Of a stretch of DNA of 64,000 nucleotides, positions 1-21,628 are shown in pieces. Position 1 is the stretch's first letter. Every line of letters begins with the position of its first letter. Both the position numbers and the translations under genes were made by a program. The stretch is from Parapedobacter defluvii (GTDB lineage: Bacteria > Bacteroidota > Bacteroidia > Sphingobacteriales > Sphingobacteriaceae), in contig NZ_BMIK01000003.1 in assembly GCF_014642075.1 (NCBI RefSeq), forward strand, positions 1-64,000. The letters are read 5' to 3'. Below the pieces are notes generated by a model. It saw only the letters and a program-made list of their open reading frames with translations. It made no database searches and was not told the DNA's origin.

Positions 1-40
1 CTAAACTTTCTTCTTGATTTCTTCATTCTCAACTGCTAAT

Positions 41-601
41 TTAAACATTTATGCAGTTGTCCAGTATTTGGGGAGTATCACATCCCTCAGATTTACTATG
101 AAAAATGACTTTATTTCCATATCGATTCAGGTCTTCGTATAGTTCATCGTCAATTTTCTTTTCGGAGAGGAATGTTCCATTGAGGTCAAAAAACAGTAGT
201 CTAGAATAGTCGTTGTAAATCAGTATTTGTTCAGATAATTCATCAAATGCGATATCAATGACCGATCGCGACTCTCCAGGGCCCCTTCCTACTCGGTTAA
301 TGCTTGATTGGATTTTCCCGGTTTTGGCATCGATAACAAAAACAGTACTGTTGCCACCAGAAAGCAATATGATTCTATCTTTATGTCTAATTACCTTTTT
401 TATATCTGCTATAAGCAAATCATCACCTGTCTCGATCTGTATGACATCGGCAATTTCAAAATGATCCTTAAAGTAACCCGCTATAGACGGCTTATCCGGT
501 GCAGTTAATATGATCTGCTTACGTTCCCTATCCGGTTGATTGGAGGTACAGGACAAAAGTAGGAATAATAAAGCGCAAAAGGGTATAAATGGTTTTATCA
601 T
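41..601 (-). CDS. Shortened six-bladed beta-propeller lipoprotein
   Basis: The N-terminus is a lipoprotein signal (MIKPFIPFCALLFLLLSC), with the lipid-accepting Cys near residue 18. The following sequence resembles the first half of the six-bladed propeller lipoproteins common in Bacteroidota: a DVIQIET-type strand, then a VFVIDAKTGKI strand and an RVGRGPGES blade motif. The complete relative in this window (20364-21407) has 347 residues, whereas this one stops at 186, so it probably holds only two or three blades. The start is firm because it gives a full signal peptide. It lies about 100 bp downstream of an NVEALA-like peptide gene on the same strand, the same order as at 21.6-20.4 kb. It may be a decaying copy; an alternative is that a frameshift close to the window edge hides the second half. 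Confidence 0.65.
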   Translation of the reverse strand: MIKPFIPFCALLFLLLSCTSNQPDRERKQIILTAPDKPSIAGYFKDHFEIADVIQIETGDDLLIADIKKVIRHKDRIILLSGGNSTVFVIDAKTGKIQSSINRVGRGPGESRSVIDIAFDELSEQILIYNDYSRLLFFDLNGTFLSEKKIDDELYEDLNRYGNKVIFHSKSEGCDTPQILDNCINV

Positions 602-658
602 GGTATTTTTGAAGGGAGTAGAATAATTTAAGCGGACTAAACAGTTTAAATGAACAAG

Positions 659-684
659 GGGGCATCATTACTTTGATGCACCCC
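659..684 (-). terminator. Hairpin between NVEALA-like gene and propeller gene
   Basis: GGGGCATC and GATGCACCCC form an imperfect stem (one bulged A) with an 8-nt loop. It lies between the stop of the NVEALA-like reading frame and the start of the propeller gene. There is no strong T-run on the minus strand, so it may act as a partial terminator or mRNA processing/stability element that lets the short upstream gene be expressed above the downstream one. That role is inference. Confidence 0.4.
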
Positions 685-704
685 AAGTTTAATGATTGTT
701 GGCA

Positions 705-974
705 TTAAGCGCCGCCGCAGCCTTGGCTTGAAGGCGTGTAAACGGAGTAATTACCTGGGGTACATTCGAAATCGCCTTCACCCTCGCAGGCTCTGTTGTA
801 GGAAACGACTTTATAGCCCACGCCATCGATACAAGCGTAGCTGCTTCCAGTTTGGGTTATCACAATCTTGCTGACGCCTTGGTCATTTTCATTCTGTGCC
901 AGCGCTTCATCGCTCTTTTTACAGCGAAGAAAGCCTGAATAGTCCCTATATGCTAATCGAGGTTTTTGCAATAA
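705..974 (-). pseudogene. NVEALA-like peptide gene lacking its leader
   Basis: The frame encodes an 89-residue product containing DEALAQNENDQG, which matches the NVEALA-x-NE region of the Bacteroidota NVEALA peptide family. The region after it carries four Cys (ACIDG, ACEGEG, FECTPG, QGCGGA) and ends in Gly-Gly-Ala. Family members normally have an N-terminal Lys-rich hydrophobic export segment before the NVEALA motif; here none is present. The in-frame upstream DNA is instead the duplicated 3' flank of the neighbouring small membrane-protein gene. The leader was therefore probably lost when that gene was duplicated. The ATG at 974 is the only in-frame start that avoids the upstream gene and has no visible ribosome-binding site. 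It could still be expressed by read-through, but I favour a remnant. Confidence 0.5.
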
Positions 975-1146
975 CATCGTAAATCCGTTTATACGGCATT
1001 CAAAAGTGTTGCCATCTATTTTCCGGATCGTAGGGAACCCGATTGGGTTCGATCTCTTTCCATGATTTATACTCAAAATCAACACTTTGAAATAAATAGT
1101 AAGACCATCGCCAAAAACATAATGGATTAATCCGATATAAGCGATA
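972..1146. repeat. Direct repeat copy 2 (3' end of small membrane gene plus flank)
   Basis: This stretch is nearly identical to 1403-1576. It covers the last about 50 codons of the small membrane-protein gene and about 30 bp beyond its stop (shared words include ATCGTAAATCCG and CGGATCGTAGGGAACCC). Homology stops abruptly near 972, exactly where the NVEALA-like frame becomes unique. Confidence 0.85.
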
Positions 1147-1392
1147 AACTTTTTGATTTTCAGGCGTTGGCTTCATTTCTTCTATAAAGAATTTGATAGA
1201 CTGTTGACTAAGGCGAGGATTTTTAAATCCAAACGTTTCGTGAACAGTAAAAGATGCATCCGCATTAGAATATTTAAAATGGTCGTTATCTATCTTATAT
1301 AGGATGTATGCATTTAGTATGGGTAAGTTGCTCAAAAGACCAATAATAAAATAGATTAGGACAAATCTTAACAAATATTTTCTCACTTTCAT
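1000..1392 (-). CDS. Small membrane-anchored protein, tandem copy 2
   Basis: The 130-residue product has a basic N-terminus and one hydrophobic segment at about residues 9-29, then a soluble domain. It shares the C-terminal block LYRINPLCFWRWSYYLF and YKSWKEIEPNR with the next gene upstream, while the middle is more diverged (YSNADAS is conserved). I do not recognise a named family. The pair arose by tandem duplication that includes the 3' flank. Position downstream of a secreted lipoprotein with a possible enzymatic C-terminus would suit immunity or chaperone genes, but that is inference only. The start is supported by the signal-anchor immediately following. Confidence 0.75.
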   Translation of the reverse strand: MKVRKYLLRFVLIYFIIGLLSNLPILNAYILYKIDNDHFKYSNADASFTVHETFGFKNPRLSQQSIKFFIEEMKPTPENQKVYRLYRINPLCFWRWSYYLFQSVDFEYKSWKEIEPNRVPYDPENRWQHF

Positions 1393-1402
1393 ATCAATTA
1401 CT

Positions 1403-1576
1403 GTTATCGTAAATCCGTTTTATACGGCATTTAAAAGTCTTGCCATCTATTTTCCGGATCGTAGGGAACCCGATTGGGTTCAATTTCTTTCCATGATTTA
1501 TATTCAAAATCAACACTTGTAAATAAATAGTAAGACCACCGCCAAAAACATAATGGATTAATCCGATATAAACGAT
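1403..1576. repeat. Direct repeat copy 1 (3' end of small membrane gene plus flank)
   Basis: Partner of 972-1146. The high conservation of the coding 3' ends and of about 30 bp of noncoding flank, against weaker similarity in the 5' halves, suggests a fairly recent duplication or gene conversion of the 3' parts. Confidence 0.85.
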
Positions 1577-1814
1577 ACAACGTTGAGTTTTCTTTAGAAG
1601 GCTTTTCCTCTTCAATAAACCGTTCTATTAGCTTAGGAGAAAAAAAACCGTCCTTAAAGCCAAACCCTTGAATTCTGGTATACGATGCATCTGCATTAGA
1701 ATATCTAAAATGGTCCCTACCATCAAATAGAACAATAAAATCTTTATTAATCATCGGTAAGTTGGTAATCACAATTATTACACTTAGCACGATCAATATG
1801 GGTTTCCATTTCAT
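1431..1814 (-). CDS. Small membrane-anchored protein, tandem copy 1
   Basis: The product has 127 residues with an N-terminal hydrophobic segment (residues about 5-18) and a soluble C-terminal domain nearly identical over its last 45 residues to the neighbouring copy. It begins 6 bp after the stop of the 486-aa lipoprotein gene, so the two are probably cotranscribed. No known catalytic motif is visible. The aromatic/basic block FWRWSYYLF followed by YKSWKEIE is the defining feature. Function unknown; a protein acting in the envelope beside the upstream lipoprotein is plausible. Confidence 0.75.
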   Translation of the reverse strand: MKWKPILIVLSVIIVITNLPMINKDFIVLFDGRDHFRYSNADASYTRIQGFGFKDGFFSPKLIERFIEEEKPSKENSTLYRLYRINPLCFWRWSYYLFTSVDFEYKSWKEIEPNRVPYDPENRWQDF

Positions 1815-1820
1815 AGCTAT

Positions 1821-3281
1821 TTAGTTACAATTTGTACTGATAGGTGGTCTTGAAGAAACATTGGACACACCTGAGTCGCCTCCGATTCTTTTTTGATCTA
1901 AGTAACCGTACAAACCTGCAGGTGTAGTATAACCAATGTTGCTATTGGGAACATCTAGTTCTTGGCTGCCTGTTTGTGTTGAATTAAAGACCTCAAGAGC
2001 GTAATCCGTACAATTATAATCATTTAAGTCGTATAATTTACCGCTTGATGTTAACGCCTGGCTTATGGCATTATTAAATTTGGTGGCAGTTATTGTACGG
2101 GTAAGTCTAATATCGCTCCTTCTGAGAAGATTAGAATATTCTTCTCCTATTCCACTTGCTATAGGAAGTTTATTTATTGAAACCCAGGTGTCCACTTTTG
2201 GGTAAAAACCAAAACTCAAACGCTGTATATTTGACCCGTTAGATTTCTCAAGCGTGATATAAGCGTGCCCAGGGTCGTCATCGCTAAACGAATACTCCAC
2301 TGCAGGAGATCCTTGAACAGCGGAATGTACGTGTATTGTTATTTTATATTGTGTAGAACTATTTGATGGAACGGAATTGAAACATTCTATTCTCGATTGA
2401 AGATTAATTGAACTTACTGGCGCAACGGCAATGTGATTGGTTGCACTTGCAGAACCACCTCCTCCGGGAGGCCAGGGATCTGGATCCGGATCTGTACCTG
2501 GTTCACCTGAGCAGTATGTTTGGCACGTTTGTCCCGTCTGTTGGGTTGAGCATTCAAGCGTAATAATGTTTTCGTCATCCAGATATGACTCACAAACATA
2601 TTGCCAAATCGGTGTACAAATGTTATAACAGTCAACACTGGCCGGAGACATTGTATCTTCATCTTCCGGTTGAACAATTTCTGCGCTTGCTGACGGGACA
2701 TAGCTCCTTACAACCACTCCATCCTCTATACGCAGCACACGGATCACCTCCATATCAATACTGCGATATTCCAGATATCCGCTGAAGCGGTCCTGCATTT
2801 TCCTGATTGTGTTCAGTCCCATCTCTGCTTTCCGCTCCATAAGGTATGCTTTATCCGGGATATAGGTCAATAGCCGTTCTTCCATCTTTCCAGAAGCATT
2901 CTTAAAAAAGAGTAGCCGCTGCATACTCCATTCACCCACCGACTCGTCTGGCTCATACTTTACACTATCAGCCGGAAAACGATACAACGCTATCTGCTTC
3001 CTTTTCGTCGAGGCCGGTACCTCCACATACCTTTTCCCCCGCTGTTCCGACTGGTACGCCCTAGACCATAGCAATTCCGTTAAAGTGGAGTCGAGCACCG
3101 GATTGGAACGTTTAGCTACCGATCTAGTAAGTTTGCGATAATGTGATTCGGCTACTTCAAGGCTGAGTTCTCTGGAATCATCTTCCGTTGACTCGAAGCC
3201 TATATCATTTTTCTGACACCCAACCGCTATAAGCACCGTCAGTAGCAATAATCGTGTTTGTGTGATTTTCATCTGATACAT
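1821..3281 (-). CDS. Large lipoprotein with Cys-rich middle and possible papain-like C-terminal domain
   Basis: The 486-residue product starts with a lipoprotein signal (LLLLTVLIAVGC). Residues about 25-200 form a soluble domain I do not recognise. A Cys-rich stretch follows (VDCYNICTPIW, YVCESYL, LECSTQQ, QTYCSGE), then a low-complexity DPDPDPWPPGGGG linker. The C-terminal part contains GHAYITLEK, a GFYP motif and YNCTDYALEVF. A Gly-His followed later by an Asn-Cys-x-x-Tyr/Phe-Ala helix is reminiscent of permuted papain-fold (NlpC/P60-like) peptidases and of some secreted toxin domains; this is inference from motif order only. The ATG at 3272 (MKITQ) is an equally good start. It leads an apparent operon with the two duplicated small membrane genes. 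Confidence 0.75.
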   Translation of the reverse strand: MYQMKITQTRLLLLTVLIAVGCQKNDIGFESTEDDSRELSLEVAESHYRKLTRSVAKRSNPVLDSTLTELLWSRAYQSEQRGKRYVEVPASTKRKQIALYRFPADSVKYEPDESVGEWSMQRLLFFKNASGKMEERLLTYIPDKAYLMERKAEMGLNTIRKMQDRFSGYLEYRSIDMEVIRVLRIEDGVVVRSYVPSASAEIVQPEDEDTMSPASVDCYNICTPIWQYVCESYLDDENIITLECSTQQTGQTCQTYCSGEPGTDPDPDPWPPGGGGSASATNHIAVAPVSSINLQSRIECFNSVPSNSSTQYKITIHVHSAVQGSPAVEYSFSDDDPGHAYITLEKSNGSNIQRLSFGFYPKVDTWVSINKLPIASGIGEEYSNLLRRSDIRLTRTITATKFNNAISQALTSSGKLYDLNDYNCTDYALEVFNSTQTGSQELDVPNSNIGYTTPAGLYGYLDQKRIGGDSGVSNVSSRPPISTNCN

Positions 3282-3349: not shown

Positions 3350-4719
3350 TCATAACCGCTGTTCAATTTTTTCCAACTCAGTAGTCACCGAGGTACGGAT
3401 TTTATCTACTTCTGGGGAAGGTATTTTGATAGGTAACCTCAAAATACCTTGTCCTTCCTCAAGCGCATCATGCCACCGTTCTGTTTGGGCATAATAAAGA
3501 AAGAGGCTTTTCCGGGTTCCAAACCGATTAGGAACCATAAATACTGCACGCTTGAAAGCATGCTCAGCATTTTCTGTATCTTGTAATGCTAGATAACTTT
3601 GACCTAAAAGCTCATAAAGTCGGTTGGACGGTTGTTGATAGATTGCTTTACATAAAACATCAACTGCCTCCTTATAGTCTTCATTTTTAATCAATTGATA
3701 TGCATAAAAGGTAAGATAAGGAACATGATTACCCATTGACTCCGAAAGATCATTCAGCATCTCCAAACCTTCATTCATAAAACCGGCATGGCATAGTCTT
3801 TGGGCCTCTTTCCATTGCTCCTCAACTTTACTCATCCAGAAAAATTGATGATAATTAGCAGCAACAAATGAGCCTATTCCCAGCACGGCTAAAATTAAAT
3901 ATGTTGAATTCTGAGACTTATTTAGACCATCGAGACTATAATACAGTATTACAAGTATGAATATGAGTACAAGCAATTGAATGATCGACCTTTCTATGAT
4001 ATGGGTAAAAAGTGCAGCTACGGCTAACGCGACCAAGGTTGTAAAGGAAAATACCAGTAATCAGGCATATTTCTTCCGTATTTTTTAAACAGAAAAATAA
4101 CTAACCTGATAACCACAGCTGAAATCGAAAGAAAAACTGCAATTCCGACCAATCCCTTTTCAACCATGAACTGCCAGTAGTCATTAAAAGCAAAATAAGT
4201 ATTATCCGCAAGTAGCAGTTCTTTTTCCGTAAATTTACCCTTCTCGAAGTAGTCAGCCTGATATTGTAGGAAAGTAGACTTAAAGCGTCCTTCCCCTACG
4301 CCAAAAGCGTAATTATCAGAAAATATAACGGACGAAATCTTATAGACTAACATCCTTCCCGCTGAAGAATCGGTTTTAAAAAGAAATATAAGTGCTAATA
4401 ACAAACAAGGGATAAATATTGAGATTCCATAAAAGACTTTTTGGAGACCCAATTTGGCGCGAAACCTCGAATATAGAAACAACAGTACCAAGCTTACGGT
4501 AAAACCAACTATAAGCGCCCTGCTTCCCACATAGACACTTCCCGTAAGGAGTATGGCATGTATAAGGATGCTTATTTGTTCTGGTTTATTTATTAGTATC
4601 TGCATAGTAAACGCGAAGCTATCAACACAAAACAAATATAGCACTATTAGTTGCAGCCCACTGCCTGATAAGAATTGAGTAAGAATTGACATGACCAACT
4701 TCAATCGTTGTTTATTCAT
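3350..4719 (-). pseudogene. O-antigen ligase-like/TPR membrane protein, frameshifted
   Basis: Two frames overlapping by 13 bp near 4030 together read as one Bacteroidota O-antigen-ligase-family protein with C-terminal TPRs. The 5' frame (4024-4719) has several membrane segments, an SRA motif (GSRALIVG), and the periplasmic stretch with GVGEGRF, YQADYF and LLADNTYFAFNDYW that is typical of the family. The 3' frame (3350-4036) resumes with two more membrane helices and TPR-like repeats ending in KIPSPEVDKIR. A one-base shift in the text reading YWYFPL then TTLVALAVAA breaks the gene. The joined product (about 455 aa) is also shorter than the roughly 550-600 aa I expect, apparently missing early membrane segments. 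It therefore looks inactive unless the shift is a sequencing error. Confidence 0.75.
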
Positions 4720-4835
4720 AGTTTTATTTCTTTAAACCAAAATAGCAACAATACAGGTTGCATTAACATTGGAACTGCAGACGCTGGGTTTTTGGGCAAA
4801 CTAAGTTTAATTAGGTATTAAATTTTTGACATGAT
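4664..4835. repeat. Divergent promoter/5'-end module, copy 1
   Basis: This segment is homologous to 18338-18520. Shared words are GATAAGAATTGAGTAAGA, AGTTTTATTTCTTT, ACAATACCAG/ACAATACAGG and TTAATTAGGTA/TTAATCAGGTA. It contains the 5' end of the O-antigen-ligase-like gene (minus) and runs up to the start of the transglutaminase lipoprotein gene (plus), so it is a shared intergenic control region. The 18.4-kb copy sits between a relic of the same gene and a TlpA lipoprotein gene. Confidence 0.75.
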
Positions 4836-6903
4836 AGTTGGTGATATATTTGGAAAACTGATGTGCTTCACGAGTGCCGTCTGCCTTTCTATGAGCGGAT
4901 GCCACTCAAATCATACGCATCCAGCGGAGGTGATGGAGGTATTGAAATCAGCAGGAAGAAATCGTAATCAATTAAGTCAGGTATTGAATCACTACTCTAA
5001 GGATCCATCCGATAGTCTTAAATATCAAGCCGCTTGCTTTCTCATTTCCGGAATGAAGGAGAGGTATTCTTCCTATCTGTTGAATGACGTTCCTCCGATA
5101 GTCCGCAAAGCGTATGTCGCGATGGATTCAGCTGTCAGGTCCAATTACTTCAACCCTTATTGGGGAGATACAGACACTAAAATCGATTCTGTGCACCTGA
5201 TTTATTCGGATTCTATTGCTACTTCACTATCGACAGGTAGCGTTTATAATTCAGGTATACAGTATGGTAATCATTTAGACCCTTTAACTATAGAATCAAA
5301 ATGGCTGATAGATCATATCGAGAATTCATTTTATGTATGGAACACTTCTAAGCTTGCTAACGGGCTCGATTTTGACGAATTTAAAGAACTGATTTTGCCC
5401 TATCGATATCGTAATGAAGCGCTTGATTTAACGTCGTCAAAATACCGTGAGTTGTATTGGGATATCATCCAAGCAGATTCTTCCATAGATTTAGAATCGA
5501 TTGTTAACAAGCTAAATACCTACTCGACGAAGATGAGTTGCATAGAAAAGACTGGGCCTCATATAGGTAACTTTGCATTCTACGATTTAATGCACTTTAA
5601 TACGCTGGGATGCGATAGGCATTCGGAATGGATGTGCAGGGTACTGAATGCATGCGGTGTTCCGGCAGCATTGGACTTTACCCCTTCGTGGAAAAATAGA
5701 AACCGTGGGCATTTTTGGGTTTCTGTAAGAGACAAAACCGGCAATTACCATCCCTTTACGCCTATGTGGCAACCATTACACGACTCTATATATTTTTCTG
5801 AAACCTCAAAGGTATTTAGGCTAACCTATACGAAACAGTCAAATCCTGCTACCTTAAATAAGGATGGAGAAGAAATTCCTTCAGCATTCTCTAACCCTCG
5901 CATACTGGATGTCACAGAATTATATCATAAAGTTACTAATTTGACCATTCCTGTAAATCAAACCGGAAACCGCAGAGAGCTGGGATACTTGTCAATTTTT
6001 AGTCCCGATGGATGGAAACCCATAGGGTGGGGAAAGTATGTTAATAAAAACAGTGCTCTTTTCTTCGAAAAAGTTCCGGTTTCTACCATCTACGCATCTG
6101 GTTTACAAGTAGATGGTCAGATTACTCCTAACACCCACCCTTTTTATGTTCAGGAGGATGGCCAGATTGTATATATCGTTCCGGATTCAACCAAGCGGAT
6201 AGATATTCATGTAAAAAGGAAATTTCATGAGAAGGGACATCTCATTGAGATGATGGAGAAAATGATTGGAACCAAAGTGCTGGCTTCAACTACTATAGAT
6301 TTTTCGGATTTTGACACTTTACATATCCTAACGCGCCAGGATTTGTCTGCTATGAGTACTAAATCAATACCAATGAAGTTAAAAAAAGCATACCGTTACA
6401 TTCGACTAATTCCCGAAGGTGAAAACGAACTAAATCTAACGGGTTTAAAAATATTTGCAAAATCTTCACAGGATTTCGAATCTAAAAGTATAAAATACAA
6501 GCCTTTGACAAATGACAATCGCTATGATGAGCTTCAAAACGACAATCCCGACACTTTTACTACTTTAAAAGTACTCGAAATAGATCTGATGCTACCTATG
6601 TTAATAGATGCTATTGAAATAACGCCAAGAAATTCAAATAATGGAATAGTACCTGGAGATACCTATGAGCTACTTTATTTTGACAAGCACTGGATTTCCG
6701 CGGGAATAACGCTTGCGTCAACTAATTCACTAACTTTTAAAAATATACCTGCCAATACATTGTACTGGCTTAGAAATCTAGACAGAGGAAGAGAAGAACA
6801 GGCTTTTCTTTATAATGGAGAAAGGCAAATTTTCATCAATGAAGACAACTACATCAACAATTCATGGGTACCATTTGGGGAATGCATGAAAGAACTTTAT
6901 TAG
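4831..6903 (+). CDS. Transglutaminase-like domain lipoprotein
   Basis: The 690-aa product starts with a short lipoprotein signal ending SMSGC. A transglutaminase-like core lies at about residues 255-315: NTLGCDRHSEWMCRVLNACG supplies the Cys-containing helix preceding a GVPA turn, and RGHFWVSV supplies the His strand. This is the Cys-His-Asp arrangement of bacterial papain-like transglutaminases, which act as peptidases or crosslinkers. The C-terminal half looks beta-rich and may contain carbohydrate-binding-like domains; no specific motif proves that. It is exported and lipid-anchored, with AT-rich codon use like the rest of the island. It is transcribed divergently from the broken O-antigen-ligase-like gene. 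Confidence 0.8.
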   Translation: MIVGDIFGKLMCFTSAVCLSMSGCHSNHTHPAEVMEVLKSAGRNRNQLSQVLNHYSKDPSDSLKYQAACFLISGMKERYSSYLLNDVPPIVRKAYVAMDSAVRSNYFNPYWGDTDTKIDSVHLIYSDSIATSLSTGSVYNSGIQYGNHLDPLTIESKWLIDHIENSFYVWNTSKLANGLDFDEFKELILPYRYRNEALDLTSSKYRELYWDIIQADSSIDLESIVNKLNTYSTKMSCIEKTGPHIGNFAFYDLMHFNTLGCDRHSEWMCRVLNACGVPAALDFTPSWKNRNRGHFWVSVRDKTGNYHPFTPMWQPLHDSIYFSETSKVFRLTYTKQSNPATLNKDGEEIPSAFSNPRILDVTELYHKVTNLTIPVNQTGNRRELGYLSIFSPDGWKPIGWGKYVNKNSALFFEKVPVSTIYASGLQVDGQITPNTHPFYVQEDGQIVYIVPDSTKRIDIHVKRKFHEKGHLIEMMEKMIGTKVLASTTIDFSDFDTLHILTRQDLSAMSTKSIPMKLKKAYRYIRLIPEGENELNLTGLKIFAKSSQDFESKSIKYKPLTNDNRYDELQNDNPDTFTTLKVLEIDLMLPMLIDAIEITPRNSNNGIVPGDTYELLYFDKHWISAGITLASTNSLTFKNIPANTLYWLRNLDRGREEQAFLYNGERQIFINEDNYINNSWVPFGECMKELY

Positions 6904-11513: not shown

Positions 11514-12893
11514 TCATCGAGCATTCTGGATAAGCCCACTTAAATCCACTTCATTGTCCGGTATGGGCCATACCCACCTAGGGTCATTGGGTGGCAATTC
11601 ATAACGCTGACCATCAATGACACGGACCACCGTCCTGGCCAACCGGGGTTCTTTATTCAGGCGACGAAGGTCCTCCCACCGTGTTCCCCGCATAAACAGT
11701 TCCTTCCTCCGCTCAAGCAATATGATATCCAACGCTTCCTCAGCGTTAGAAGCGGTTAATGGTACAAATTGATTCCGGTCGTAACGATGGGCAAGAAGTT
11801 CGTTGAGATCTTCCATCGCCGCGGGCACATCTCCCGATCTCGCGCGGCATTCCGCCCGCATGAGCCACAATTCACTGCTTGTAAGTCCCGAAAAATAACC
11901 TGCGCTGCCCAGGTAAGAGCCCTTAAACAGTACACGACCATCGTCGTTGTCATAAAAATATGCGCTGCGACGCAGATCCTCCGGCGAATATGACTTTAAA
12001 AGGACGGAATCCGCATTAAATCTTCCGGTCGCAAGTAACGTCAGCGAAGTGGGGCGAGAATAAAACAGTACCTCCGGATTATTCTGACCATAATCCGCCG
12101 GAAAGGGATACCTGGCTGCGGTATCCACTTCGTTGAAATCGACCAACTCACCCCCTGATTCCAACCCGATGCTAACATAGTGTTCCACATTTTCATAACT
12201 ACCCCTTTGCAGAAAAACCCTTCCCAAGAGCACGCAAGCGGCCGCTTTCGATGGTCGATGCTTGTTTGCCGCCGTATGGGGCAATAAGTTTATTGCGGTC
12301 TCCAAATCGCTAACGATTTGACGATAAGTTGCCTCAAGCGATCCCCTAGTACTCGGTGTGGAGACATCGTAGTCCAACCGCAAAGGAATTCCCAGATCGG
12401 CGTTAGCGGAAACAGGATCATAAGGCTTGCAGAAAAGCTGCACCAAATGATAAAAATTCAATGCCCGGAAAAATAAAGCACTGCCGATAACGTTGTCCCA
12501 TGCTTGCCGTTCAGAGGGTTCGGGTGTGATATCCCGCACGCCAAGTGCCATGTTTGCATATAATATCCGCTGATAGGCTTGGTTCCAATCCTGTACCTCC
12601 GCGCCTTCGTAAACTTCTTTCGCCCAAACGTAGCCATTACGCTGGAAAGGTTGTGAAAGCGTAGACAGCCTGCCGTCAAGCAGGTAATACTCATCGGAGC
12701 CTATCAATGCCAGGCCCACGGAAGATGCCTCGTTCATTACCAATTGATAATCCAATATCGCCTGATAATCGGCTATTGTGGCCGGAACAACCTGTTTGGC
12801 GTCCTGTTTTATATTTAGAAAAGTCTTCCCGCATGAAAGCAGGCAGACAAGCGGCAATAAAGCCACTATGCTCCAGTTTATCGATTTCTTCAT
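11514..12893 (-). CDS. SusD/RagB-family outer-membrane lipoprotein
   Basis: The 459-aa protein has a lipoprotein signal (LLPLVCLLSCGK) and the SusD layout. An N-terminal TPR-containing part includes YQRILYANMAL and ALFFRALNFYHLVQLF, and the C-terminal part has LWLMRAECRARSGD, IILLERRKELFMRGTRWEDL and the WPIPDNEVD end motif. SusD proteins form the lid over a SusC TonB-dependent transporter and capture the ligand at the surface. It lies 22 bp downstream of SusC in the same operon. The TlpA gene upstream suggests a peptide- or Cys-linked substrate rather than a simple glycan; this is inference. Confidence 0.95.
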   Translation of the reverse strand: MKKSINWSIVALLPLVCLLSCGKTFLNIKQDAKQVVPATIADYQAILDYQLVMNEASSVGLALIGSDEYYLLDGRLSTLSQPFQRNGYVWAKEVYEGAEVQDWNQAYQRILYANMALGVRDITPEPSERQAWDNVIGSALFFRALNFYHLVQLFCKPYDPVSANADLGIPLRLDYDVSTPSTRGSLEATYRQIVSDLETAINLLPHTAANKHRPSKAAACVLLGRVFLQRGSYENVEHYVSIGLESGGELVDFNEVDTAARYPFPADYGQNNPEVLFYSRPTSLTLLATGRFNADSVLLKSYSPEDLRRSAYFYDNDDGRVLFKGSYLGSAGYFSGLTSSELWLMRAECRARSGDVPAAMEDLNELLAHRYDRNQFVPLTASNAEEALDIILLERRKELFMRGTRWEDLRRLNKEPRLARTVVRVIDGQRYELPPNDPRWVWPIPDNEVDLSGLIQNAR

Positions 12894-12915
12894 ATGTAAT
12901 CAGCGTTAGAAATAG

Positions 12916-15900: not shown

Positions 15901-16158
15901 CCGGAAGGACATATGTGTGATGATCAGGGTATCGTTGGCCGATGGCAGGGCGATGCGGAAATATCCATTGGCATCCGACACGGTCGTTCTCGCTGCTTTC
16001 TCCAGCCGGACCCCGGCCCCTTGGAGCATTTCTCCCGACTGAGCTCGGATCTCCCCTTCGAGCACCGTCTGTGCCGAAAGGGGCAGCCAGCATACTGAGA
16101 ATAGTATGATACAAAAGATGATTCTTAGGCTTTTCATATTTTGGAAAAGGTTTAGCAT
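12916..16158 (-). CDS. SusC/RagA-family TonB-linked outer-membrane transporter
   Basis: The 1080-aa protein has a signal peptide (IIFCIILFSVCWLPLSAQ), a carboxypeptidase-regulatory-like domain at about 30-110, a variant SusC signature (EEVEVNTGFYRVPRERVTGS) and the plug domain (SDIRVRGLATIES, IVVDNFPYEG, ESVTVLKDAAASSIWG). A 22-strand barrel would follow. No N-terminal STN domain is present, so it is not wired to an anti-sigma factor. The ATG overlaps the TlpA stop as TAATG, implying translational coupling; a second ATG at 16137 begins directly at the signal peptide and is also possible. It imports an unknown ligand with the SusD partner. Confidence 0.95.
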   Translation of the reverse strand: MLNLFQNMKSLRIIFCIILFSVCWLPLSAQTVLEGEIRAQSGEMLQGAGVRLEKAARTTVSDANGYFRIALPSANDTLIITHMSFRETRIPVTPGMPQPLLIILERVENTLEEVEVNTGFYRVPRERVTGSFTHVDNSVLNRSVGGNILQRLEGIASGVQFTQANGTSPSDIRVRGLATIESSEEPLIVVDNFPYEGDINAINPNDIESVTVLKDAAASSIWGARAGNGVIVITTKQGHYNRRSHISFNSNVTVGDKPDLFYSQRRLPSDVVMQIEEEKYKQGGHYLPTENQSPFPEYVELLIKRDEGELSEEEFYSMETVLRNTDVREEALRYLYQQSLYQQYALNVSGGGENYSYYLSSGYDKNRSEVIGNGNSRLNLSLQNTFKPIEELELSVGGWYTQSTGTNNGLTLSNLRGGGAVYLSPYIRLADENGAPLPIIHEYRLPYAESESASGLLDWQYRPLDEIRLADHSSLANQLRLNGRLRFNTKIGFSVEASYQYVQDNGRSTSYYDPESYYVRNLVNRFTQPNGSTVIPHGGILVGGSEVPTTSHSGRGQLNYRREFGGVHELVALLGGEARQRVQEQYPGYTIYNYDSELLTGSANYNYTQNYEIRPIGRARVSPPSVARNRYTDRYLSYFANMSYGYGQRYILSASARWDGSNLFGVKTNQKGTPLWSAGFSWETSKEGFYRFELIPYLRWRVTYGSAGNINKRVSTYPTIFHAGPDWITGLQNAWISSAGNPSLRWEQVNTLNIGLDFSTKNKRFSGSADYYIKYASDLIGADYLAPSTGIITGGLASNTNLINYANLQTHGLDFQLTSVNVQGAFSWQTTVLANYVRNEITHYNTNETLELGSYFNPSTTPPVIGRSRDVVYAQPWHGLDHNSGLPVIYVGDEQSTDYRAYWDAFTPDQLLVAGVSVPPYHGSIRNDFSWRGISLSALISWKAGYVFRRGSMFPGREYETHGAVDYHMDYFKRWQQPGDEKHTNVPTGAGANTLAGSYAYRYTQALISSGDLIRLQDVSLSYTLDARRLGIPFQRIRFYAYARNLGVLWKANRDGIDPDFADAEFPAPRTVALGLQLTI

Positions 16159-16817
16159 TAATTTTCTTCGACGGTTTCGGCTTCTTGATATCGTTTATCG
16201 AAATAGGTAAGCAGGTCATTCATCTCGATACCCAGGGGCCTGTTGGTGATTGCTTTCGCGACCAGCGCCCGGTCCACATCTTTGCTTTTAGGGATAGCAA
16301 TGAGCTTTCCGTCCTTGATCCAGACCTGCCCGAAACTTTTGTATGCATAAAACAATCTATTGATGGTGGTATCTGCCCGGTTACCCAGCGCTATCGGAAA
16401 CTGCCAGCCCTTTCGCTGTGCGAACGGCAGCGCACTCGGATTGTCGCCATACAGGTGAACCGCGATGACGGCCACTTCCCTCGGAAATACCTTCTGCAAC
16501 GTATCCCATTTATCAAGTGATATGATACAGGCTGTACAGGCCGTGTTCCAAAAATCCAGCACCAAAAGCTGGTTTTTAAAGGATTCCATTTTTATGGTAG
16601 GACTGCCCCAGGGATGGTTTGCCACCCGGAGTTCCAAATTCCAGAATGCTTCCGGCAGGCTATCGCCGATTACAACACCCCCTTCTGGTATGGAAAGACG
16701 GACTGCGGACTGCTCAACACGGGCTTTGAGAATCGAATCCCGGCGAGCCTCTTTGCCGTGCGAATCGCCCTGCGCCCGCAGATGATTACCACAAAACAGA
16801 ATTAATAACATGACCAT
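16158..16817 (-). CDS. TlpA-like periplasmic thioredoxin-fold protein
   Basis: With the start at ATG 16817 the product is 219 aa and opens with a signal peptide (MVMLLILFCGNHLRAQG). The thioredoxin core has FWNTACTACIISLDKW, a Cys-x-x-Cys active site, then a VAVIAVHLYG strand and the FGQVWIKDGKL region. TlpA-like proteins reduce or isomerise disulfides in the periplasm. The frame stays open 155 codons further upstream, to 17282. That extension lacks a signal at its N-terminus, contains the 11-bp repeat array, and would bury the hydrophobic signal internally, so I reject it as coding. First gene of a TlpA-SusC-SusD operon. Confidence 0.85.
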   Translation of the reverse strand: MVMLLILFCGNHLRAQGDSHGKEARRDSILKARVEQSAVRLSIPEGGVVIGDSLPEAFWNLELRVANHPWGSPTIKMESFKNQLLVLDFWNTACTACIISLDKWDTLQKVFPREVAVIAVHLYGDNPSALPFAQRKGWQFPIALGNRADTTINRLFYAYKSFGQVWIKDGKLIAIPKSKDVDRALVAKAITNRPLGIEMNDLLTYFDKRYQEAETVEEN

Positions 16818-16880
16818 TCCCAAAGCGAGGCCCAGCCCACTACGGGCTGGAGCCTTCGCATGGGTCCAAACACATGTTTC

Positions 16881-16962
16881 TTCAAAATTTCTTCGACAGG
16901 TGTTCGACTGCTGTTCGAGACTTGTTCGACAATCCTTCGAGAGCGCTTCGACAAATGTTCGA
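16881..16962. repeat. Array of 11-bp repeats (TTCGA + 6 variable bases)
   Basis: TTCGA begins at 16892, 16903, 16914, 16925, 16936, 16947 and 16958, each exactly 11 bp apart. A degenerate unit (TTCAA) at 16881 is in the same phase. The six bases between cores vary (for example CAGGTG, CTGCTG, GACTTG, CAATCC). The array ends 64 bp upstream of the TlpA start. A period of about one helical turn would place every core on one face of the helix, which would suit cooperative protein binding; function is unknown. Confidence 0.9.
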
Positions 16963-17491
16963 CCTTCTCCCGACTTTCTCCTGACCTTGTTCTCCCATCT
17001 CGCATGCTGTGCGCGGGGCGTATGCGTGCTGTACCTGTGGTTTTCCCACATACGGGCCGCATACACCCCGATAGATTCACGGGATATGTCAGGAGAAAGG
17101 CAGAAAAAAGCACGAAGAAAGGCGGGACACGTTTGCGAGTTTCCTGCATAAGTATTCCGCTTATCCGGTACATATTGTGGGTGTATACGGTTAATAAGTT
17201 TTGTTTGCTTGAGGCAATACAGGCCCCCTAAGCGTAAATTTTGCTTCATTTTTATGCGATTTGTTAAGATTTGGGTTTGCAAATCCGTTTTGGCATTTAG
17301 CCAACCGAAAGGTAGGGAGTGACGTTAGATGGGGTTGCGTGGTTTCAGTGGGAATAACCGCTCAAAGGCCGTAAGCGATGCCTTGCCATATTTCGGTAAA
17401 GGGTAGGTGTACTGCATATCTTTTTATCAGTTGGTTAAACTCTTTGATTGCAGCGAGAGGAGGAATAAAAAAGCGGGCCTCTGCTCACTAC

Positions 17492-18299: not shown

Positions 18300-18395
18300 T
18301 TAAATGCTTACCGCATAGACACCTCTTGTAAGAAGTCCGCTCTTGGATAAGAATTGAGTAAGATTTGACAAGACCAACCGTAACCGTTGTTTCTT
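18300..18395 (-). pseudogene. Relic of the 5' end of an O-antigen-ligase-like gene
   Basis: On the minus strand the frame reads KKQRLRLVLSNLTQFLSKSGL before a stop. This aligns codon by codon with the N-terminus of the gene at 4719 (NKQRLKLVMSILTQFLSGSGL), but the ATG has been lost and nothing of the membrane domain follows. Together with the homologous upstream region it shows that a second copy of that gene once stood here. Confidence 0.7.
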
Positions 18396-18520
18396 TAAAG
18401 TTTTATTTCTTTGAACCCAATAAGCTACAATACCAGCAGTATTGGCTTGGAGCCATAAATGTAGGGTATTTAGTCATGGTAGGTTAATCAGGTAACTTTA
18501 ATATTTTGATAGTGATGAAT
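18338..18520. repeat. Divergent promoter/5'-end module, copy 2
   Basis: Homologous to 4664-4835 (see that entry). It makes up most of the gene-free stretch 18177-18655. The rest, up to the TlpA lipoprotein start, is AT-rich DNA in which I see no further gene or structure. Confidence 0.75.
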
Positions 18521-18655: not shown

Positions 18656-19315
18656 ATGATCAGATTGATACTTGTACTTTCGGTGTTGTCTCTGGTTTCC
18701 TGCAAAGCGACCATGATGAACATGGCTTTGAAGACTTTCAAGAAAGATGCCGGAAAGACATTCCCCCAAGTGTGGTTGGAAGATACGGTGGGTAACAGGG
18801 CACCCACCGACAGTATTTTCACCACTGAGGTCGCGTTTTTAAATATGTGGGGCACATGGTGCAGCCCGTGTTTAAACGAAATCGATGACTTAAACGTACT
18901 GATGGATCGAATGGCGCACAACCAGGATGTTTCTTTCATTAATATCTGTGCGAGGAGTACTCGGGAAGATTGGCTTAGGGTAGTGAACGAGAAGAAGCTG
19001 CAGGGAAAAAATTACTTTATTAGTGATGCTGAATTTGAAAGAATGTCGCAGCAGATTGACTCGCCGCTGGAAGGCTTTCCGATGCATTTAGTCGTCTCGG
19101 GCAACTGTGAGATTTTGGGGAGTAATCTTGGTGTTTCGTCGGTCGAACAGCCCATTACCGTTTATGTACTGTTGCAAGGGCAGAAAGGAATGCACGCATA
19201 TCAGGCGGCAAAAGAGTTTCTTGCCATGGCAAGCCCCCTTAACACCAGTCAGAAATTTGACGATTCCAATCCGCTCATAAACATTATGAAGACGTACTTT
19301 CCGGATAGCTTCTAA
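18656..19315 (+). CDS. TlpA-like thioredoxin-fold lipoprotein
   Basis: The 219-aa product has a lipoprotein signal (LILVLSVLSLVSC) and a thioredoxin-fold core with NMWGTWCSPCLNEI, a Cys-x-x-Cys redox site, plus the cis-Pro-type segment GFPMHLVVSG. It would act as a membrane-anchored thiol-disulfide reductase in the periplasm or at the outer membrane. It lies just after the duplicated divergent promoter module, in the position taken by the transglutaminase lipoprotein at 4.8 kb. The nearby NVEALA peptide with two Cys is a conceivable client (inference). Confidence 0.9.
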   Translation: MIRLILVLSVLSLVSCKATMMNMALKTFKKDAGKTFPQVWLEDTVGNRAPTDSIFTTEVAFLNMWGTWCSPCLNEIDDLNVLMDRMAHNQDVSFINICARSTREDWLRVVNEKKLQGKNYFISDAEFERMSQQIDSPLEGFPMHLVVSGNCEILGSNLGVSSVEQPITVYVLLQGQKGMHAYQAAKEFLAMASPLNTSQKFDDSNPLINIMKTYFPDSF

Positions 19316-19415: not shown

Positions 19416-19554
19416 CGACGCAGCCTAAACCGCATTATATATCCGATACTTTTCTTATTTTTGTAAGAAGCTAATACAACACTCCGAATCATTGGTGATA
19501 GAGGGGAATGTGAGGAAGATTAAGGGGAAATAAAAACGGAATAGGAATAGGATT

Positions 19555-19803
19555 ATGACAACGTTAACTGTAAATGTCGATAATGAAAAGGACTTGCCGG
19601 TATTGAAAGAAATCCTTAATCGGTTTGGTTTGAAATATAAAGTAGACAAACAAGCGGAATTGAACGAAGAAGGCGAAGTTCTCTATAAACGATTTAAGAA
19701 GACATTTAAGGAGATAAAAGATTGGGAAGCGGGAAAAGTGAAATTACAACCTGCAAAAGAGGCATTAGCCGAAATCGAAGCCGAATTGAACAATGGGGTT
19801 TGA
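19555..19803 (+). CDS. Antitoxin of a RelE/ParE-type toxin-antitoxin pair
   Basis: The 82-aa, charged, helical protein begins MTTLTVNVDNEKDLPVLKEI, a short strand-helix N-terminus as in dimerising antitoxins, followed by a long acidic/basic helix. It has no membrane segment. Its stop overlaps the toxin start by 11 bp, the usual arrangement for such pairs. It would neutralise the toxin and repress the operon. Assignment rests mainly on the gene pairing and size. Confidence 0.75.
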   Translation: MTTLTVNVDNEKDLPVLKEILNRFGLKYKVDKQAELNEEGEVLYKRFKKTFKEIKDWEAGKVKLQPAKEALAEIEAELNNGV

Positions 19804-20124
19804 GGTATTTTTTTCTTCCACTTTTAAAAGAGAGCTAAAGCGAATTGCAAAAAAACACCGGCAAATCCTTAAAGATATCAACCAACTAATTGACGACCTT
19901 GCCGAAGACCCGGCCCTGGGCACAGATCTAGGTCAAAATGTCTATAAAATTCGCCTTGCTATTTCCGGCACATCAAAAGGAAAATCTGGTGGTGCAAGGG
20001 TTATAACCTACATTAGATTTACCAATGAATCCGTTGTACTGCGGAAATATACCTAAAAAACGAGCATGACACCGTGGACGTGGACACGGTCATTGATCGG
20101 TTGAAAAATGAAGGTTTATTGTAA
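19793..20124 (+). pseudogene. RelE/ParE-family toxin with a C-terminal frameshift
   Basis: The uninterrupted frame gives 87 residues (19793-20056) with the RelE/ParE features FKRELKRIAKKHRQILKDI, YKIRLAISGTSKGKSGGARV and ITYIRF. The expected C-terminus is in another frame: restoring one G between 20040 and 20041 gives VVLAEIYLKNEHDTVDVDTV then IDRLKNEGLL and a TAA at 20122-20124, a 110-aa protein of normal length. A single-base deletion has therefore replaced the last strand and helix. These RNA-interferase or gyrase-poison toxins need their C-terminal strand, so this one is probably weakened or inactive. Confidence 0.8.
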
Positions 20125-20363
20125 TAGCCTCATGCGAAGGCAAAGAATAATTATGAAACAGACATCAGTTATTTCAACTGAAACTGTCATTTACCATGGC
20201 CATACTTTGATTTAATTACTTCTCAGTTAGTCTAACCATCCGCCTTCCTGATAACTTAGTAGGGAAAATGATGGAAGTACCGACCTTTGAACTAGAGACG
20301 CCGGCGGAAAAGCCAGCTGTGGTGATGGCCCAGGAAATGATAACCAAAACAACAAAATCGACG

Positions 20364-21407
20364 CTAAGGTAAATACGTGTATTCGACAAGGGGTTGATCC
20401 GCATTCACATCTAACCCGATAATTTTCTTGTTTTCTTCGTCGATGTGGAACCCAGTGATATACCTATCCAACACATATTGCCTTACGGGGTTACCCTGCA
20501 AGTCAAACACATGGATGTAGCGACCGCCTTCCCTGATCTCTTTTTGTTGCTTAATATCATCAAACGAACGCCCCCAAAATATAGCGTAGATGTGCTTTTT
20601 GCCGATGTGGACATCGCTGTATCCCATAATGCCTGTAGGCACCGCGTAATCTCCCCGCGTCACGAACTGCGGTTCCATACCCGTTGGTTTGACGATGTTG
20701 AGGGTACGCTCATTACGGATATCATAAATTTCCAGCACTTGCCCCAATTGCGTGACCATAGCTAAAATCCCATGATCGGCGTTGTAATGTAAGAACGATC
20801 GCCATGCCTGCGCAAGTGGAAAATCAGCATCACGAGTGTTGTTATGGGAAGCTGCAGGAATGTTGAATAAGCTGCGGACAACCCTGCCATCTCGGTTCAC
20901 AAATAACAATCGATGCAATCCGGTATAATCCGGAACAACAAACGTCGAATCGTTTAACAGATCAAAATCCAATGTCCGGATGAGTCCTTCATCCAACGGT
21001 ATGGCCTCCTCCGGAGCGGACACATCGGCCTCGCCAAAACGAGCTATTTTTTTCCGGTTGGCATCCAAGACCCAAAAACGTCCCTGATTGTCTAAGCGAA
21101 TATTCTCCGCATCCAGAAACTCATTGGGAGCTTCCCCCCGCTTTACAAAACTGCGTTTATGCTCCATAGAGGGGTATGCAAACTCATGGCAATAGTAGTC
21201 AATGGGATGTATGTCCATAATGTACAGCGAGGTGCCATGGAGCCGCACCCGGAATGGATACTTGAGGTAAACATCGGGTATCGTCCTTTCTTTACCTATC
21301 AGTGAGATGGTTTCCGGAAATTTAACATCACTGAAACTCTCAGATTTACCGCAGGAGTTAACTATTGATAATACGAAGAGTCCGAGTGTAGGTATGACGA
21401 TATTCAT
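20364..21407 (-). CDS. Six-bladed beta-propeller lipoprotein
   Basis: The chosen start (ATG 21407) lies 5 bp after the stop of the NVEALA gene and gives a lipoprotein signal (IVIPTLGLFVLSIVNSC); the frame extends upstream but would overlap that gene. The 347-aa protein has repeated blade motifs (FVKRGEAPNEFLDAENIRLD, RFWVLDANRKKIARFG, YIHVFDLQGNPVRQYVLD) and ends PLVEYTYLP. Bacteroidota propeller lipoproteins of this kind frequently accompany NVEALA peptides; their ligand is not known. It probably works at the envelope with the peptide encoded directly upstream. Confidence 0.9.
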   Translation of the reverse strand: MNIVIPTLGLFVLSIVNSCGKSESFSDVKFPETISLIGKERTIPDVYLKYPFRVRLHGTSLYIMDIHPIDYYCHEFAYPSMEHKRSFVKRGEAPNEFLDAENIRLDNQGRFWVLDANRKKIARFGEADVSAPEEAIPLDEGLIRTLDFDLLNDSTFVVPDYTGLHRLLFVNRDGRVVRSLFNIPAASHNNTRDADFPLAQAWRSFLHYNADHGILAMVTQLGQVLEIYDIRNERTLNIVKPTGMEPQFVTRGDYAVPTGIMGYSDVHIGKKHIYAIFWGRSFDDIKQQKEIREGGRYIHVFDLQGNPVRQYVLDRYITGFHIDEENKKIIGLDVNADQPLVEYTYLP

Positions 21408-21412
21408 CAATT

Positions 21413-21628
21413 CTACCGTATATATAAAACCTTTATAGCGGAATGGGGACAATCAACACTACCCAATAAAAAACATTTCGTATCGGAATCCTCCCCACTA
21501 GCTAAAGCTTCGATATTGTTCAATGTGACACCCATCATACCCGCTTTTCCCCCATCAAATTTCAGATTAACATTTAGGCCAATACTTGTCGATGCAACTA
21601 TCGCAATTGATGTTAAATATTTCTTCAT
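21413..21628 (-). CDS. NVEALA-family exported peptide
   Basis: The 71-residue precursor has a Lys-initiated hydrophobic leader (MKKYLTSIAIVASTSIGLNV) and the motif NNIEALASGED, equivalent to the family's NVEALA sequence. After this comes a short tail with two Cys (TKCFLLGSVDCPHS). The motif sits where a maturation or cleavage site could lie. Family members are small secreted Bacteroidota peptides of unknown function, often beside propeller lipoproteins, TlpA and O-antigen-ligase-like genes, as in this window. First gene of a two-gene unit with the propeller. Confidence 0.85.
   Translation of the reverse strand: MKKYLTSIAIVASTSIGLNVNLKFDGGKAGMMGVTLNNIEALASGEDSDTKCFLLGSVDCPHSAIKVLYIR

What the first reader, a model, noticed from the sequence alone, without database searches (positions are those of the whole stretch)
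1..21628. Two AT-rich islands share a paralogous peptide/lipoprotein cassette
Islands at 1-6.9 kb and 17.5-21.7 kb both carry an NVEALA-type peptide (one intact, one without leader), a six-bladed-propeller lipoprotein (one complete, one half-length), an O-antigen-ligase-like gene or relic, and a redox or transglutaminase-type lipoprotein. The divergent promoter regions at 4664-4835 and 18338-18520 are homologous. They look like two copies of one cassette in different states of decay. A system linking small exported Cys-containing peptides, propellers, TlpA and an O-antigen-ligase-like membrane enzyme has, to my knowledge, no assigned function.
Basis: partly seen in the sequence, partly recalled or inferred. 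Interest (0 to 1): 0.72.

Follow-up and report, generated by a model that had tools for sequence, protein, structure and literature searches.

The report
Variable secreted peptides with matching propellers
The window holds part of an apparently unstudied gene system, also found in many gut Bacteroides and Parabacteroides, that seems to make small disulfide-linked peptides whose variable part changes together with a partner propeller protein, under a dedicated sensor and DNA switch; it may be a bacterial peptide weapon or signal, but no function has been tested.

Summary
The genes are real, but the two "islands" are not two copies of one cassette. They share an 88-bp stretch (84% identity), one adjoining 32-bp match and no protein pair. 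The stretch holds an operator: AAGAATTG repeated at an 11-bp period. The islands are pieces of one locus, split by a 10-kb segment. The "half-length" propeller is broken by an IS-like repeat at a contig end; its other half begins contig C37, which carries most of the remaining genes.

In 66 NVEALA regions (20 control regions) and 79 named loci (13 overlapping), an architecture recurs: a regulator divergent from a conserved peptide (NA), TolB-like propeller, CxxC lipoprotein, pairs of variable peptide (NB) and propeller, transglutaminase-like lipoprotein, signal peptidase, O-antigen-ligase/TPR protein, and in a minority RND exporter genes. NB leaders are 72% identical within loci, cores near chance. 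Cores track adjacent propellers (r=0.66, 0 of 500 permutations; replicated). Two-component and one-component regulators share a sensor domain.

Best reading: a regulated secreted-peptide system, NA an inducer candidate, NB peptides effectors, propellers cognate binding or immunity proteins. Anatomy is shown; function is inferred. No paper in the held library contains "NVEALA".

The parts
1..82 (.). End of an IS-like repeat that interrupts the propeller gene; also a contig end
   Evidence: Identical 82 bp at the ends of contigs C1, C8, C15 and C18; imperfect inverted repeats, 19 of 26 alike, and a 3-bp GGA target duplication read by eye from both sides. The body of the element was not found or read
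83..601 (-). N-terminal half of a DUF5128-type six-bladed propeller lipoprotein; the C-terminal half starts contig C37
   Evidence: Matches residues 13-171 of the P. koreensis propeller L035_16 at 62%; C37's first ORF matches 171-374 at 57%
705..911 (-). Leaderless relic of a variable (NB) NVEALA peptide with a Cys-containing core
   Evidence: translation; PF14055 below cut-off, 11.9 bits
3350..4719 (-). Relic of the Wzy_C/TPR protein (WZY) in two frames, N-terminal part missing
   Evidence: PF04932 E 7.1e-10 and TPR matches; aligns to C37 WZY residues 218-342 and 426-614 of 624, no NPGP motif
4669..4689 (+). Operator: direct repeat of AAGAATTG, 11-bp period, upstream of TG
   Evidence: motif found de novo in other loci
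4831..6903 (+). TG: transglutaminase-like lipoprotein with carbohydrate-binding-like C-terminal domains; Cys261 and His294 kept
   Evidence: Member of a family of 57 in 45 of 66 regions; Cys and His invariant in 44 of 44; matches to carbohydrate-binding modules; transglutaminases top the fold search but weakly
18348..18368 (+). Operator, 308 bp upstream of the TlpA-like gene
18656..19315 (+). TlpA/ResA-like thioredoxin lipoprotein with CSPC, not a member of the system's own CxxC family T2
   Evidence: PF08534 E 5.6e-7; NCBIfam ResA model E 2.4e-8, below cut-off; no T2 match
20364..21407 (-). TolB_like propeller lipoprotein, partner of NA
   Evidence: PF15869 E 4.6e-77; 73% to P. koreensis; model pLDDT 85.2, beta-propeller fold
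21413..21628 (-). NA: conserved-type NVEALA peptide, core with CxxxGSVDCP...KV
   Evidence: PF14055 over cut-off; NA type
21705..21725 (-). Operator between NA and the histidine kinase, 78 bp before NA
   Evidence: 3 mismatches to the pattern
21846..23228 (+). Histidine kinase whose periplasmic sensor is shared with the one-component regulators of Bacteroidales (start set by orthologues)
23218..23886 (+). OmpR/PhoB-type response regulator, proposed to bind the operator
   Evidence: PF00072 and PF00486; co-occurs with the operator

Best explanation
This is one locus of a regulated secreted-peptide system. SHOWN by sequence: (1) peptides share an N-terminal hydrophobic leader ending in N[VI]EALA or close to it, followed by a short, usually Cys-containing core; (2) two kinds exist, a conserved NA next to most regulators and hypervariable NB peptides most of which are followed by a propeller lipoprotein; (3) many loci also encode a CxxC lipoprotein, a transglutaminase-like lipoprotein, a signal-peptidase-I homologue with Ser/Lys dyad and a Wzy_C/TPR membrane protein, and a minority of the fetched regions an RND/HlyD/TolC set; (4) a tandem operator marks promoters where the two-component form of the regulator is present. 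INFERRED: the leader takes the peptide to the inner membrane, the dedicated signal peptidase cuts after EALA, the CxxC protein sets the disulfides, the Wzy_C and transglutaminase-like proteins modify or anchor the product, and the RND set exports it. Each propeller binds its own peptide core and acts as carrier or immunity protein. NA or its complex is sensed in the periplasm and switches the locus on, like the inducing peptide of a bacteriocin locus, while NB peptides are effectors against competitors. The copy in this genome is incomplete in the window but has a processing and export set on contig C37.
For: Neighbours: in 66 regions chosen for NVEALA, propellers occur in 65, T2 in 50, TG in 45, REG in 40, SPI in 39, WZY in 38, HlyD in 22 and RND in 17; each in 0 of 20 random control regions. 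T2 follows NVEALA across 65 genomes of one family (f12, Parabacteroides among them): 32 of 37 with against 3 of 28 without, p 8e-10. NB leaders 72% identical within loci, cores 28% (NB cores in general 27%, shuffled 24%); even Cys number in 121 of 142, one of them with none. NB followed by a propeller in 128 of 156. Core-propeller similarity r 0.66 against within-locus permutation mean 0.31, maximum 0.54, 0 of 500; leader-propeller r 0.11; replicated on 58 pairs from loci that share no DNA with the first set, r 0.67, mean 0.32, maximum 0.60, 0 of 500. Nearest peptide within 700 bp is NA for 40 of 52 regulators by the stricter typing (43 of 52 have an NA by the looser one) and for 54 of 64 in the non-overlapping second set, against the NA motif in 6 of 92 other peptides. 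HK and REG share a sensor, hhalign probability 98.8, E 1.4e-16. Operator found de novo in HK loci: AGAAT at period 11 in 17 of 55 upstream segments, 0.0 expected; in 21 non-overlapping HK loci 24 upstream sites against 2.0 in shuffles, in 35 REG-only loci 2 against 2.3. SPI dyad 39 of 39, T2 CxxC 97% of 58.
Against: No activity, secretion, processing or binding was tested. Core-propeller correlation could come from the pair being copied as a unit without binding; the permutation draws only on loci with more than one pair (25 of 61 and 15 of 41). NA-sensor correlation (0.53) is hardly above NA with the DNA-binding half (0.48); partial 0.27 against 0.10. RND, HlyD and TolC are in a minority of regions (17, 22 and 7 of 66; many regions are cut by contig or fetch ends). 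T2 is only weakly thioredoxin-like by Pfam (Redoxin E 0.035). NVEALA is rare in the window's own family (4 of 151 genomes) and in 2 of 9 genomes of its genus. 8 of 52 regulators (two of them unrelated kinases) and 8 of 64 have no peptide within 700 bp. 5 of 37 NVEALA genomes lack T2 and 3 of 28 without NVEALA have it. 27 of 66 regions have no NA by the stricter typing.
Confidence: 0.42

Rival explanations
1. The peptides are building or decorating parts of the cell surface: NB cores dock into outer-membrane propellers, the Wzy_C protein attaches a glycan and the transglutaminase-like lipoprotein with carbohydrate-binding-like domains fixes them. Variation evades phages or host immunity rather than kills competitors.
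For: TolB-like propellers, T2 and TG carry lipoprotein-type signal cysteines (Cys19 in 18 of 18; T2 Cys20 98% of 58 and TG Cys24 44 of 44); TG matches carbohydrate-binding modules; Wzy_C and TPR; exporter genes missing from most fetched regions.
Against: The RND/HlyD/TolC set, where present, and the inducer-like place of NA are not explained; mostly even Cys counts and small cores suit soluble disulfide peptides as well.
Confidence: 0.25
2. All peptides are signals: each propeller is the periplasmic or surface receptor of its own peptide, giving a kin-recognition or multi-channel quorum system with no toxicity.
For: Cognate core-propeller tracking, one sensor shared by two output types, NA beside the sensor.
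Against: 52 regulators in 66 regions against up to nine NB peptides in one region; no signalling domain in the propellers annotated.
Confidence: 0.15
3. No functional partnership: pairs are passive hitch-hiking cassettes in a variable genomic island and the correlation is inheritance as a unit.
For: The locus sits at different genomic places in the genus and NVEALA is absent from 7 of 9 genomes.
Against: Leaders in the same genes do not track the propeller (r 0.11); catalytic residues conserved across families; shared operator across genera.
Confidence: 0.12
4. One reading: two paralogous copies of one cassette in different states of decay.
For: A shared 88-bp stretch and a similar list of gene types.
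Against: No other homology between the islands but one adjoining 32-bp match; the parts complement rather than repeat each other, and the missing half-gene is on C37.
Confidence: 0.02

Closest known systems
Pheromone-regulated class II bacteriocin loci of Gram-positive bacteria (recalled)
   Same: A conserved inducer-type peptide beside a sensor, several leader-sharing hypervariable Cys peptides, a cognate partner gene after most of them, one shared operator
   Different: No C39-peptidase ABC exporter among the 13 recurrent families and no double-glycine leader; partners are propeller lipoproteins; signal peptidase I, Wzy_C and transglutaminase-like proteins of its own
Pfam NVEALA PF14055, TolB_like PF15869, DUF5128 PF17170, DUF4221 PF13970
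   Same: The peptide and propellers are members of these families by score
   Different: Pfam lists them singly, without a function in the descriptions returned; 4RAA (a DUF5128-type relative, E 1.6e-63) and 3S9J (listed as DUF4221) are solved, without a role named in the listings
BfUbb toxin region of Bacteroides fragilis (PMC5705921, abstract and passages read)
   Same: A small secreted antagonistic protein encoded beside propeller genes that vary between strains
   Different: In two B. fragilis genomes the mutL-side propeller row has no NVEALA peptide found; ubiquitin likeness is not a feature of NVEALA peptides
RiPP clusters of Bacteroidales (PMC10352776, listing and a six-term search of its main text)
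   Same: Leader-core peptide genes in the same order of bacteria
   Different: No modifying enzyme of a known RiPP class is among the recurrent families here; the paper's main text has none of: propeller, TolB, signal peptidase, O-antigen, transglutaminase, double-glycine
PglL/WaaL-type Wzy_C ligases (recalled)
   Same: WZY carries the Wzy_C domain (PF04932) plus TPRs
   Different: Recurrent place in a peptide operon; acceptor unknown

Membership tests
Pfam NVEALA (PF14055) | Score over the curated cut-off of 27 bits | tested here: met
   21413-21628 31.9 bits, C37 peptide 51.8 bits; the relic in 705-1085 has 11.9 bits and is not a member by score
Pheromone-regulated class II bacteriocin locus | Leader-conserved, core-variable peptides with cognate partner genes | tested here: met
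   By sequence only:
Pheromone-regulated class II bacteriocin locus | C39-peptidase ABC transporter that cuts a double-glycine leader | tested here: not met
   None among the 13 families that recur in 5 or more of 66 regions, by one or more representatives each (REG had no Pfam match); leader ends EALA. Rarer neighbours were not annotated
Pheromone-regulated class II bacteriocin locus | Killing of related strains, and immunity | not testable with these tools
   needs culture work
RiPP biosynthetic cluster | Dedicated post-translational modifying enzyme of a known RiPP class | tested here: not met
   No such family among the 13 recurrent families annotated; the transglutaminase-like protein remains an untested possibility
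Signal peptidase I (S26) | S26 domain with catalytic Ser and Lys | tested here: met
   PF10502 E 9e-30 and 1.1e-28; TIGR02227 over cut-off; Ser43 and Lys116 in 39 of 39 (that these are the catalytic pair is recalled)
Transglutaminase-like superfamily | Cys-His-Asp triad | tested here: inconclusive
   Cys261 and His294 in 44 of 44; an Asp column in 37 of 44 and kept in the window protein; Pfam match below cut-off for a relative and none for the window protein; fold search weak
OmpR/PhoB-type response regulator with tandem operator | Receiver plus Trans_reg_C domain and direct-repeat sites at about 11 bp | tested here: met
   (binding itself not tested)
   Only one adjoining 32-bp match, E 0.007, and no protein pair

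The most novel reading that the evidence does not exclude
A Bacteroidota-specific peptide warfare and recognition system: one inducer peptide (NA) is read by a periplasmic sensor that evolution has fitted to either a kinase or a one-component regulator, and it switches on an expandable array of hypervariable disulfide peptides, each neutralised or presented by its own beta-propeller lipoprotein. Its peptide, propeller and processing families are not those of known bacteriocin, RiPP or toxin-immunity systems, and it is carried by human gut Bacteroides and Parabacteroides.
Probability: 0.3. Interest if true: 0.95.

Novelty: categorically new. Interest (0 to 1): 0.8.

Why it matters
The parts list recurs in Bacteroides, Parabacteroides, Tannerella MAGs, Sphingobacterium and Parapedobacter, including two B. 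fragilis genomes with several clusters each, yet 'NVEALA' is in no paper of the held library. If the reading holds, it is an unstudied layer of competition or communication among gut bacteria with new peptide scaffolds, a new partner fold and a predicted DNA switch. Each step is directly testable by gene removal.

Tried and rejected
Rejected: two-copy cassette. Rejected: the half-length propeller as simple decay. Tried as a functional clue: B. fragilis BfUbb toxin region. Its propeller row has no NVEALA peptide found in the two genomes looked at, so it is not used as evidence. Tried: a lookup of named relatives with the peptide alone, which found none; the propeller alignment worked. Tried: the operator in one-component (REG) loci; the motif is not enriched there (26 hits, 22 in one shuffle, 4 upstream, non-overlapping: 19 hits, 17.0 shuffled, 2 upstream, 2.3 shuffled), and the best tandem motifs in REG loci are few and each in 2 to 4 loci. 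Tried: NA-sensor co-variation, which is suggestive only. Fold search of the transglutaminase-like model gave weak long alignments, and of the TolB-like model a general propeller match topped by an amidating lyase; I do not claim lyase activity. Paper searches: PF14055 returned only five papers on Plasmodium or enzyme profiles, apparently other identifiers (listing); PF15869, PF17170, PF16288, DUF5128 and DUF4934 nothing; structure and gene codes only noise; Parapedobacter with bacteriocin three unrelated papers. First peptide typing mixed leader sequence into some cores and was redone on cores; under it one plain NA beside the kinase in L037 is counted as NB. In one search two NA-like peptides (L147_12, L148_10) are among the NB pairs, and its '22 of 22' counts many pairs in both directions. 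The pattern was written after seeing HK-side peptides, so their NA counts are partly post hoc. Corrected on checking: my notebook says that everything right of W_29 is conserved in G093; one search shows this only for W_29 to W_36. The second set of loci was first treated as independent; 13 of 79 share DNA with the first set and were removed.

Full report
OBSERVATION. The AT-rich stretches, the intact NVEALA peptide (21413-21628), the leaderless relic, both propellers, the Wzy_C relic, the TlpA-like gene and the transglutaminase-type gene are present. The repeat is real but short: 4667-4754 against 18346-18433, 84% over 88 bp. Beyond one adjoining 32-bp match (E 0.007) only chance-level DNA matches remain, and the best protein pair has E 0.51. 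In the genome the same stretch has one further partial match of note, C37:757-781, E 0.02, 89 bp upstream of the T2 gene there.

ONE LOCUS, NOT TWO COPIES. The window starts at the end of contig C3. The propeller at 41-601 matches residues 13-171 of its Parapedobacter koreensis relative (62%), and the first ORF of contig C37 matches residues 171-374 of the same protein (57%). The first 82 bp of the window recur, identical, at the ends of contigs C1, C8, C15 and C18. Reading both sides gives imperfect inverted repeats (19 of 26 bases) and, by eye, a 3-bp GGA duplication. So an IS-like element probably sits in the propeller gene and broke the assembly there; its body was not seen, and the join of C3 to C37 is inferred. 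C37 carries T2, a variable NVEALA peptide, a DUF5128 propeller, signal peptidase, Wzy_C/TPR, HlyD, RND and TolC genes. Taken with the window's kinase, regulator, NA, TolB-like propeller and TG, the genome has one set of the families. The 6.9-17.3 kb between the islands is of another kind (SusD-type and MauE genes among those annotated). In the closest relative without NVEALA (G093), W_29 to W_36 (23.9-32.8 kb) are conserved at 90-96% (W_34 75%), then only distant matches follow; of the proteins W_08 to W_28 of 80 aa or more, none but a SusC-type paralogue (23-30%) is found in the about 60 kb examined around W_29. In P. koreensis the locus lies elsewhere on its contig. NVEALA is in 2 of 9 genomes of the genus.

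CONSERVED ARCHITECTURE. I took 66 regions with NVEALA (60 chosen by me from the listings, plus the window, C37, and four regions from three other genomes; some genomes give two regions and many regions are cut short) and 20 regions at round coordinates of long contigs in the same genomes as controls. Recurrent families: peptide 66 (by construction), propeller 65, T2 50, TG 45, REG 40, SPI 39, WZY 38, HlyD 22, DUF4221 propeller 19, RND 17, TolC 7, each 0 of 20 in controls. The HK family shows 6 members, but two of those kinases are only remotely related, so 4 count. The usual order is REG or HK/RR divergent from NA, TolB-like propeller, T2, then NB-propeller pairs, TG, SPI, WZY, HlyD, RND, with many variations. 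79 named loci found with the TolB-like propeller (the best 80 of 125) repeat the order in the 18 that I printed: Parapedobacter koreensis, Sphingobacterium, Bacteroides, Parabacteroides, Tannerella and others. 13 of the 79 share DNA with the first set; in the other 66, T2 is in 49, TG 46, REG 40, SPI 35, WZY 32, HlyD 13, RND 10 (propeller 66 by construction). T2 tracks NVEALA across 65 genomes, 32 of 37 against 3 of 28 (my cut E<1e-40, chosen after seeing the list, separates T2 from its DUF1573 tail).

PEPTIDES AND PROPELLERS. Leaders end in or near N[VI]EALA, a median 23 (NA) to 25 (NB) residues after the hydrophobic core. That is far longer than the usual distance to a signal peptidase site (recalled), which a dedicated SPI with full Ser/Lys dyad (39 of 39) may explain. 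NA cores have 2 Cys in 38 of 44 and 3 in 6. NB cores have 4 Cys in 72 of 142 and an even number in 121 of 142 (14 of 200 peptides could not be split and were left out). Within a locus NB leaders average 72% and cores 28% identity over 142 pairs; 72 of 82 pairs with leaders at 70% or more have cores under 35%. NB is followed by a propeller in 128 of 156; NA in 21 of 44, otherwise by T2 (11), NB (8), TG (1) or nothing near (3). Propellers keep the type of their peptide in best hits: NB 122 of 128, NA 18 of 21. Core and propeller similarity correlate over 104 pairs, r 0.66; shuffling propellers within loci gives mean 0.31, maximum 0.54, none of 500 reaching it; in 22 of 22 strong core matches (many counted in both directions) the propeller matches too (8.3 expected); the leader does not correlate, r 0.11. 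In 58 pairs from non-overlapping loci r 0.67, permuted mean 0.32, maximum 0.60, 0 of 500 (with overlap, 61 pairs, r 0.66). This shows transmission as a matched unit; binding is inferred.

REGULATION. The window's kinase (HK) and the Bacteroidales one-component regulator (REG; no Pfam match; sensor outside and a winged-helix-like end inside by eye) share their sensor half: hhalign probability 98.8, E 1.4e-16, 189 columns. An NA lies within 700 bp of 43 of 52 regulators by the looser typing (8 without peptide, 1 with NB only); the nearest peptide is NA for 40 of 52 by the stricter (8 none, 4 NB). In the non-overlapping second set it is 54 of 64 (8 none, 2 other), against 6 of 92 peptides away from regulators. 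NA is usually single: 35 regions have one, 3 two, 1 three, 27 none. In the own genome five sites fit with up to 3 mismatches, four of them in this system (two by construction), against two for the reversed control. In six regions of the four founder genomes, 18 of 21 hits lie upstream of system genes or the TlpA-like gene, 3.0 hits expected. In 24 second-set loci with an HK match, 50 hits with 36 upstream, 11 expected; without overlap, 21 loci, 37 hits with 24 upstream against 12.0 and 2.0 in shuffles; in 35 REG-only loci, 19 hits with 2 upstream against 17.0 and 2.3. Without any motif given, tandem AGAAT, GAATT and AATTG at period 11 top the list in 19 HK loci (17, 15 and 13 of 55 segments, 0.0 expected; two loci repeat founders). 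OmpR-type regulators binding such tandem sites is recalled knowledge.

FUNCTION. The most likely working is a regulated secreted-peptide system with an inducer candidate, variable effectors and cognate propellers. Processing, disulfide formation, modification and export are assigned from family and conserved residues, none tested. TG keeps Cys and His and matches carbohydrate-binding modules. The TolB-like model is a confident propeller (pLDDT 85.2) with general fold matches only. Rivals are surface decoration, pure signalling, and hitch-hiking.

LITERATURE. 'NVEALA': 0 papers. PF14055: five papers, on Plasmodium or enzyme profiles by their listings. Other family names: 0. Combined searches: nothing on this system by titles and abstract starts. 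The library lacks most subscription papers and preprints, and supplements were not searched. PMC5705921: abstract and passages read. PMC10352776: listing seen, and main text searched by six terms, none present.

Noticed in passing
window 1000-1814: Two tandem membrane-anchored-looking proteins of 127-130 aa, 64% identical; the one scanned has no Pfam match, and neither has a relative outside the window among the 66 regions and controls.
   Followed up: partly
window 1821-3281: A 486-aa lipoprotein-like protein inside island A with no Pfam or NCBIfam match and no relative among the 66 regions; its C-terminus has a YNCTDYALEVFN stretch that looks papain-like by eye.
   Followed up: no
window 19555-20056: A small gene pair whose second protein matches RelE/ParE toxins lies between the TolB-like propeller and the TlpA-like gene.
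   Followed up: partly
window 10446-17249: Between the islands: MauE-like gene, a 124-aa small exported-looking protein, SusD- and (by eye) SusC-type genes and a second thioredoxin-like gene, perhaps another small-peptide system.
   Followed up: no
L297 and L298 (B. fragilis mutL region): A row of six and five genes matching my propeller profile beside mutL, the region where the BfUbb toxin sits in other strains, without any NVEALA peptide found (PMC5705921 passages).
   Followed up: partly
contigs C1, C3, C8, C15, C18 ends: The same 82-bp repeat ends five contigs, so an IS-like element probably has several collapsed copies in this assembly.
   Followed up: partly
REG loci: Loci with the one-component regulator show tandem motifs of their own at 10-12 bp, each in a few loci, as if each regulator had its own operator.
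   Followed up: no
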